In this document: positions 45,138 to 46,519 of the stretch, in pieces
Numbering within the stretch: position 1 is the stretch's first letter
How the letters are laid out: each line of letters begins with the position of its first letter
From: Actinomycetota bacterium
GTDB taxonomy: Bacteria > Actinomycetota > Acidimicrobiia > Acidimicrobiales > Aldehydirespiratoraceae
Direction of reading: 5' to 3'
Assembly (NCBI GenBank): GCA_029979265.1
Contig: JAPOHW010000001.1
Coordinates: forward strand, 1 to 64,000
DNA length: 64,000 bases
Notes under the pieces: model-generated
Databases searched by the model: none
Told to the model about the DNA's origin: nothing
Seen by the model: the letters and a program-made list of their open reading frames with translations, nothing else
Made by a program: the position numbers and the translations under genes

Positions 45138-45563
45138 TCACGTCCCCAGGGTGGTCCAGGAGACGTCCTCCCAGAGCCGCATGCTCCGCCAGCCGTCGCC
45201 ATGGCGAATCAGCTCGTGGTTGTACCAACCCCCACATTCGAACGAGGGGGCATCATCGCCGGCGAAGTGCATCGGGTTGAAGAACATCGCCCGAACGGTC
45301 GCCGTGTCGCCGTCGATCGTGACCATTTCGTTGCTCACGAGGTGCTGGGTGGCCGAGAACATCTCCATCGTGATTGCCAGCCACGAGACGACCTCGTCGA
45401 CCGAGCCCTCGATCCCACCGGCCGCGGTGTAGTCGATGTGTGCGTCGGCGGTGAAGAGGGTTCGGTACAGATCCCAGTCCTTGGTGTCGACGGCAGTGGC
45501 GTACGTCGTGAGGAAGTCAGAGATGGCGAGTCGGTCGAGGAGATACTGGGGTGTCACGGTCAT
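45138..45563 (-). CDS. SnoaL-like/NTF2-fold protein
   Basis: LLDRLAISDFLTTYATAVDTKDWDLYRTLFTADAHIDYTAAGG...; start overlaps the stop of the upstream CMD gene. Confidence 0.85.
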   Translation of the reverse strand: MTVTPQYLLDRLAISDFLTTYATAVDTKDWDLYRTLFTADAHIDYTAAGGIEGSVDEVVSWLAITMEMFSATQHLVSNEMVTIDGDTATVRAMFFNPMHFAGDDAPSFECGGWYNHELIRHGDGWRSMRLWEDVSWTTLGT

Positions 45564-46519
45564 GGTCGGAGATGCTCGGGGATGACGAGCCCCATCTCGG
45601 CGGCGAGCCCCGTCGTGGCTGCTGCGACCGGTACCCCGATCGCATCCAGCAACCGATTCATCATTTCGAAGTTGGCGGCCACCATCACAATCCGGTCGGC
45701 GGTGTCGCGACCGAGGCGAAGCTCGGCACGCACCCGGGCGTCCGGGTACTCGTCCACATCGCGCAGGACACAGGCGTCGACGAGGGCGCGGATGTCGTTG
45801 CCGGCGGGCACCCCACAGGTACCGCACCCCTCCTTGATCACGCGCGTATGGAGTTCTTGGCCTGTCTCATGGAGGCTCGCACGGAGCATTCCCGCATGGG
45901 ACAGCAGTCAAAAGAAGCACTCGTTGAGGTACGACGTTCGGGCTGCAGCCAACTCGATCTGGGCGCGAGTGGCGCCGTCGCGCACGGCGAGTGGGTCTCC
46001 CATGTCGTCGATCGACAGGTAGAGCGTGTCGTGGACATCGAATTGCAGTTCGAGCCCACCCGGGATCGCAGTGAGGGCAGTCAGCGGATGCGCTGTCCCC
46101 ACGGTCGGCACCCACCCCTGATCGATCGCGGCGTCGGGGACCACCGCTCGGCTCGGCAGGCCGTCGAGCGGTACCGGCAGGACAGGGTCGTCCAGCGCAA
46201 GCCCGAATGCCGCCGTGTCGAGAGCGGTCCAGCGGGCGACGATCGAGAGGACTTCGACGTAGGCCTCGGCCCGAAGACCGGCATCGGCCCACGCAGCGAT
46301 GTCGTCGGGTCGGATCGTCCAGGCCTCGGTTGCGATTCGGCGGCTTGCGTCGGCCACGGCGTTCGGAAGGTCGGCGGCTCCGGGCCGGCCTGCCCGGGCG
46401 GCGCGAGCCTCGCGAGCGATCGCAACCTGCTCCACCCCGGTGAACCAGATCCCAGGCGCAGCCAGCGCCGCCGTCTGGCGGGCCACGAGGGCGTCGAATG
46501 CGGTGAGAAGAGCTGTCAC
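45560..46519 (-). CDS. Candidate selenoprotein: AhpD/carboxymuconolactone decarboxylase (CMD)-family protein with in-frame UGA (Sec204) at 45908-45910
   Basis: ORFs 46519..45908 and 45889..45560 are in the same frame (offset 630 nt) and separated only by TGA plus six sense codons. Readthrough gives ...TRAQIELAAARTSYLNECFF(U)LLSHAGMLRASLHETGQEL...RIVMVAANFEMMNRLLDAIGVPV..., a C-x-x-U-x-x-x-H motif matching AhpD C-x-x-C-x-x-x-H. GTG start at 46519, 4 nt after the upstream gene's stop; the 3' end overlaps the next gene's ATG. Confidence 0.8.
45872..45893 (-). promoter_or_regulatory. bSECIS-like stem-loop downstream of the in-frame UGA
   Basis: RNA: GGG-AAU-GCUC-CGUGC-GAGC-CUC. 4-bp GC-rich upper stem, 5-nt apical loop containing GU at nt +26/+27 after UGA, bulge AAU (bulged U) on the 5' side, lower GGG/CUC stem. 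Confidence 0.6.

What the first reader, a model, noticed from the sequence alone, without database searches (positions are those of the whole stretch)
45560..46519. Candidate selenoprotein: AhpD/CMD-family enzyme with in-frame UGA at the redox-motif cysteine, split in two by ordinary ORF calling
Seen directly: minus-strand ORFs 46519-45908 and 45889-45560 share a frame. Only the UGA at 45910-45908 and six sense codons (CTG CTG TCC CAT GCG GGA) separate them from the second ORF's first ATG. Readthrough gives ...LAAARTSYLNEC-F-F-U-L-L-S-H-AGMLRAS... Established: AhpD/CMD proteins carry C-x-x-C-x-x-x-H as catalytic redox residues, and selenocysteine typically replaces exactly such a Cys. The UGA falls precisely on the second Cys position with the downstream His kept. 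Coding continues for ~115 codons after UGA, ends in a CMD-like helix (RIVMVAANFEMMNRLLDAIGVPV), and overlaps the start of the next gene, which argues against a decayed pseudogene. AhpD-like selenoproteins have been reported in prokaryotic selenoproteome surveys. Whether this ~319-aa form in this lineage is described, I cannot say.
Basis: partly seen in the sequence, partly recalled or inferred. Interest (0 to 1): 0.95.

Follow-up and report, generated by a model that had tools for sequence, protein, structure and literature searches.

The report
Known AhpD-related selenoprotein, split at UGA
A marine-type actinobacterium encodes a selenium-containing redox enzyme whose gene looks like two broken pieces because the UGA codon that inserts selenocysteine is usually read as a stop; the protein family was already described, so this is a well-supported new member and not a new kind of thing.

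Summary
Minus-strand 46519-45560 is one 319-codon gene with UGA at codon 204 (45910-45908), in the motif C201-F-F-U204-LLS-H208. Read through, it passes the cut-off of NCBIfam NF041238 (AhpD_rel_CFYUT, 'alkylhydroperoxidase-related (seleno)protein'; 195 bits against 175). That family is the 'hypothetical protein 1' of the 2005 Sargasso Sea selenoproteome. The genome carries selA, selB, selD (itself with an in-frame UGA) and tRNA-Sec(UCA). In 35 of 36 aligned homologues the codon at this column is TGA; a natural Cys form (TGC) and a Gly form (GGG) also exist. Both halves are under purifying selection. Codon choice at +6 to +11 after the UGA is the most conserved in the gene and lies in a covarying hairpin that fits the published bacterial SECIS model. 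Public protein collections hold the close relatives as truncations of about 203 residues. Not described in the sources read: a separate LL-motif clade, and a genus-conserved gene row with quinone oxidoreductase, SnoaL_4, FadD3-type ligase and GAPDH. The substrate is unknown. Verdict: real selenoprotein, new member of a known family; interest modest.

The parts
45560..46519 (-). AhpD-related selenoprotein gene, GTG start, 319 codons, Sec at codon 204, stop TGA 45562-45560
   Evidence: NF041238 195.2 bits over the 175 cut-off; 79-97% identical full-length relatives read through the same TGA
45908..45910 (-). UGA codon read as selenocysteine (U204), second redox residue of C-F-F-U
   Evidence: TGA in 35 of 36 aligned homologues, GGG in one; TGC in L071/L083
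45917..45919 (-). TGC codon of Cys201, first redox residue
   Evidence: C in 36 of 36 homologues
45896..45898 (-). CAT codon of His208 of the CxxU-xxx-H motif
   Evidence: H in 36 of 36 homologues
45872..45888 (-). core of the SECIS-like hairpin (upper stem GCUC/GAGC, loop CGUGC, 24 nt after the UGA); in this gene an outer stem reaches 45904-45862
   Evidence: 93% of cells paired, one pair with changes on both sides in 13 sequences; identical-codon conservation peaks at codons +6 to +11; fold energies
46524..47501 (-). upstream neighbour: NADPH:quinone oxidoreductase-like protein of the zinc-type dehydrogenase superfamily
   Evidence: Pfam and NCBIfam matches, the latter below cut-off; next to the gene in 7 relatives
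45138..45563 (-). downstream neighbour: SnoaL_4 domain protein, start overlaps the selenoprotein stop (ATGA)
   Evidence: PF13577; sequence; synteny
43559..45202 (-). FadD3-family acyl-CoA ligase; the mechanical ORF start overlaps the SnoaL gene, so the true start is probably further in
   Evidence: NF005801 725 bits, cut-off 657; synteny

Best explanation
Minus 46519-45560 encodes one 319-residue selenoprotein of the AhpD-related family NF041238. SelB carrying Sec-tRNA-Sec is recruited by an in-frame hairpin just after the UGA, so codon 204 is read as selenocysteine. C201 and U204 then form a selenenylsulfide redox pair, helped by E189 (12 residues before C201) and H208, as in the AhpD proton relay. 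Most likely it reduces a hydroperoxide or similar electrophile in the metabolism served by the neighbouring quinone oxidoreductase, SnoaL-like protein and acyl-CoA ligase. Shown here: gene structure, machinery, conservation, SECIS-like hairpin, family. Inferred: actual Sec insertion and redox chemistry. Guess: substrate and pathway. The confidence given is for 'selenoprotein of this family'; for a peroxide-reducing role it is about 0.5.
For: NF041238 over cut-off. tRNA-Sec with UCA anticodon, 64 bits; selA 382 bits and selB 283 bits side by side on contig C9; selD 365 bits, itself FSHGAGUGC. TGA at the column in 35/36 homologues, with C(-3), H(+4) and E189 in 36/36. dN/dS of the window against its two closest relatives is 0.14 and 0.23 before the UGA and 0.07 and 0.11 after it (from dN and dS). 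All 28 genomes with a hit over the NF041238 cut-off have a selA match; none of the 19 genomes without selA has such a hit. Hairpin: 93% of cells paired against 27-52% when slid; codon-conservation peak; loop CGUGC 24 nt after the UGA with GU in the loop fits the bSECIS rules of PMC13188914. AlphaFold model pLDDT 88.5 and profile match to AhpD-like structures 2prr, 6k40, 1gu9.
Against: No protein-level evidence of Sec. In the window's own RNA the predicted optimum puts the top of the hairpin in another register (about 18% probability for the conserved register, 0.8 kcal/mol apart), and the single-sequence shuffle z-score is only -1.6. Foldseek matches to AhpD structures have E of 0.01 to 0.1. 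One relative, G036, has Gly (GGG) at the column in a genome that keeps selA, so Sec is dispensable in at least one lineage. Only one of the seven hairpin pairs shows two-sided change.
Confidence: 0.96

Rival explanations
1. Pseudogene: a nonsense mutation or assembly error at an ancestral Cys codon split the gene.
For: UGA is one base from TGC/TGT; a Cys form (TGC) exists at the same column in L071/L083.
Against: TGA is shared by 35/36 homologues across several families of the order and by independent assemblies; purifying selection continues after it; the in-frame stop is TGA, never TAA or TAG, in the aligned set.
Confidence: 0.01
2. Two separate proteins: a 203-aa N-terminal protein and an independently translated 109-aa C-terminal protein.
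For: An ATG lies seven codons after the UGA; public protein collections list close relatives as 203-aa proteins.
Against: The 203-aa calls are what a table-11 gene caller must give. The split falls inside the helix that carries the AhpD motif (residues 201-217 of the model), codons between UGA and ATG are conserved including H208 in 36/36, and the N-terminal piece alone matches no Pfam family while the joined protein passes the NF041238 cut-off.
Confidence: 0.02
3. UGA is read through by another amino acid (suppression or a reassigned code), not Sec.
For: The residue in the protein was not observed.
Against: tRNA-Sec(UCA), selA, selB and selD are all present; this gene and its upstream neighbour end in TGA; the UGA is at a redox Cys position and is followed by a conserved hairpin.
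Confidence: 0.01

Closest known systems
NCBIfam NF041238 AhpD_rel_CFYUT, alkylhydroperoxidase-related (seleno)protein; 'hypothetical protein 1' of the Sargasso Sea selenoproteome (PMC1088965), listed in PMC13188914 and PMC9312934
   Same: Score over cut-off along 300 residues, CxxU motif, bacterial SECIS-like hairpin.
   Different: The window protein has CFFU-LL instead of CFYU-T and lies in an LL clade that a tree separates from the CFYU-T clade with support 100/98; its score is near the cut-off.
AhpD of Mycobacterium tuberculosis (1gu9) and AhpD-like PA0269 (2o4d)
   Same: Glu at -12, Cys, x, x, Cys/Sec, His at +4 of the second residue (PMC3141380); profile matches.
   Different: About 320 residues with an extra N-terminal all-helical half; Sec replaces the second Cys; Phe at the Tyr/His position between them.
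Peroxidase-related AhpD-like proteins (TIGR01926; structures 2prr, 6k40)
   Same: Best structural and profile relatives of residues about 175-295.
   Different: Below that family's cut-off (33.9 of 81.8 bits); those structures are of chains of about 190 residues with CxxC.

Membership tests
NF041238 AhpD-related (seleno)protein | Whole-protein score over the curated cut-off of 175 bits | tested here: met
   195.2 bits, residues 9-308 on profile 6-345 of 357; 177.6 bits from the DNA search
NF041238 AhpD-related (seleno)protein | CxxU (or CxxC) redox motif | tested here: met
   C201-F-F-U204; Cys 36/36, TGA 35/36; the CFYU-T wording of the name is CFFU-L here
Bacterial selenoprotein | Sec machinery selA, selB, selD and tRNA-Sec in the genome | tested here: met
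Bacterial selenoprotein | SECIS-like hairpin: 3-9 nt loop with G in its first two positions, 16-37 nt from UGA, stem of 4 bp or more, MFE at or below -7.5 kcal/mol (PMC13188914) | tested here: met
   Conserved register: loop CGUGC 24 nt away, 4 bp, -18.4 kcal/mol as constrained optimum in this gene, against -19.2 for an alternative register; covariation across 30 sequences
Bacterial selenoprotein | Sec/Cys pair among homologues | tested here: met
   TGC at the same column in L071/L083
Bacterial selenoprotein | Selenium physically present in the protein | not testable with these tools
   needs 75Se labelling or mass spectrometry
Pfam CMD (PF02627) | Score over the gathering cut-off of 23 bits | tested here: not met
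   16.3 bits, E 0.01; so AhpD-related by motif, fold and NF041238, not a Pfam CMD member by score
AhpD peroxidase by function | Peroxidase or AhpC-reductase activity | not testable with these tools
   no biochemical data; catalytic residues conserved

The most novel reading that the evidence does not exclude
The LL clade (CF[FY]U-LL-x-H) is a functionally distinct selenoenzyme that works with the neighbouring quinone oxidoreductase, SnoaL-like protein and FadD3-type ligase in a CoA-dependent degradation or detoxification pathway, and not as a general antioxidant.
Probability: 0.25. Interest if true: 0.5.

Novelty: new member of a known kind. Interest (0 to 1): 0.3.

Why it matters
It adds a solid case, with SECIS covariation and purifying selection, to a selenoprotein family whose function is unknown, and shows that public protein sets carry its members as truncated proteins of about 203 residues, so the catalytic half is missing from sequence searches. 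The conserved gene neighbourhood gives a handle for finding the substrate.

Tried and rejected
Open frame after TGA as evidence: rejected as weak, 15% of TGAs in the window pass. Pseudogene, two-protein and alternative-decoding readings: rejected (see rivals). Rfam on the region found no SECIS family; bacterial SECIS elements vary widely (PMC13188914), so this does not count against. A file of the whole genome was not available, so the full selenoproteome was not listed. The single-sequence fold of the hairpin is unremarkable (z -1.6); only the alignment makes the case. One protein-family scan was of an irrelevant stretch and says nothing. A literature search for selenocysteine with Acidimicrobi- found nothing on this gene.

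Full report
Observation. The minus-strand ORFs 46519-45908 and 45889-45560 share one frame, separated by TGA 45910-45908 and six sense codons. Read through, they give a 319-residue protein with C201-F-F-U204-L-L-S-H208. The gene begins with GTG four bases after the quinone oxidoreductase gene and its stop overlaps the next start as ATGA. An open frame of this length after a TGA is common in this window (15%), so the case must rest on comparison.

Family. The joined protein scores 195.2 bits against NCBIfam NF041238, 'alkylhydroperoxidase-related (seleno)protein', cut-off 175. Pfam CMD is matched only weakly, 16.3 bits. A 2026 review lists NF041238 as 'AhpD-related protein (hypothetical protein 1, Sargasso Sea metagenome)', motif CxxU (PMC13188914). 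The 2005 source describes four sequences with CXXU, SECIS-like structures and no known function (PMC1088965).

Machinery. The window's own genome (3.3 Mb, 105 contigs, 94% complete; close relatives by name are Acidimicrobiales MAGs) has tRNA-Sec with anticodon UCA, selA and selB side by side on contig C9 and selD with an in-frame TGA in FSHGAGUGC. Among 101 genomes, all 28 with an NF041238 match over cut-off have a selA match, and none of the 19 without selA has one.

Conservation. Of 36 aligned homologues, 35 have TGA at codon 204 and one GGG; C201, H208 and E189 are invariant. Metagenome contigs at 97, 85 and 80% identity carry the same TGA, and an Acidimicrobiia MAG has TGC there. dN and dS of the window against its two closest relatives are 0.10/0.73 and 0.16/0.67 before the UGA, 0.05/0.78 and 0.08/0.80 after it: the downstream half is under at least as strong a constraint. 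Most other pairs agree; the near-identical pair L050-L048 has too few changes to say. Public collections list the close relatives mostly as proteins of 203-213 residues that cover only the first 63% of the query.

SECIS. Across 30 sequences the stretch after the UGA folds as a hairpin of up to 7 bp with a 5-nt loop; 93% of cells are paired against 27-52% when the partners are slid, and one pair changes on both sides in 13 sequences (RNAalifold predicts six of the seven pairs). Codons +6 to +11 show the highest synonymous conservation in the gene. Loop position and content fit the bSECIS model. In the window's own sequence the top of the stem can take another register, slightly favoured by RNAfold, within a longer outer stem.

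Mechanism. AhpD enzymes use Glu, Cys, Tyr/His, Cys and His as a proton relay (PMC3141380). The spacing here is E189, C201-F202-F203-U204, H208, the same as Glu118, Cys130, His132, Cys133, His137 of the M. tuberculosis enzyme, so four of five are kept with Sec for the second Cys and Phe for the Tyr/His. The AlphaFold model is confident (pLDDT 88.5) and nearly all helical; a profile of 13 relatives matches AhpD-like structures over residues about 170-295, and Foldseek ranks the same structures first with weak E-values. In one profile alignment the N-terminal half also matches the C-terminal helices of an AhpD-like protein (2oyo, domain i-Evalue 0.26), a hint of an internal duplication, not tested.

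Context and clade. A tree of 35 sequences splits the family into CFYU-T (with A or T after U) and CF[FY]U-LL-type clades with 100/98 support; the window gene is in the LL clade, and G036 (Gly) is nested inside it, an isolated loss of Sec. The row quinone oxidoreductase, selenoprotein, SnoaL_4, FadD3-type ligase, GAPDH is kept in five genus members besides the window (L055, L056, L058, L059, L066); in other genera of the family an FAH-family hydrolase lies next to the selenoprotein (L060, L061, L064, L068). The substrate remains open.

Conclusion. A genuine selenoprotein gene by every computational test available, in a known family. Sec at residue 204 awaits direct chemical proof.

Noticed in passing
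own genome, L002, L004, L005, L030 and window 45560-46519: The genome has five CMD/AhpD-superfamily genes with an in-frame TGA in a CxxU motif: CPTU (C15), CHYU (C12), CFYU (C20), CFYU (C27) and the window's CFFU.
   Followed up: partly
L061 (G036:C10:70000-80500), also L049: A relative has Gly (GGG) in place of Sec, with motif C-A-H-G and an extra Cys two residues before the first one (CRCAHG), in a genome that keeps selA: Sec lost but not replaced by Cys.
   Followed up: partly
L023 (G000:C14:6213-7139): SelD is itself a predicted selenoprotein, FSHGAGUGC.
   Followed up: partly
public protein sets, P0002-P0012: Close relatives are stored mainly as 203-213-residue truncations at the UGA.
   Followed up: partly
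window 45560-46519, residues about 40-100 of the protein: The N-terminal half resembles the C-terminal helices of AhpD-like 2oyo in a profile alignment, a possible internal duplication.
   Followed up: no
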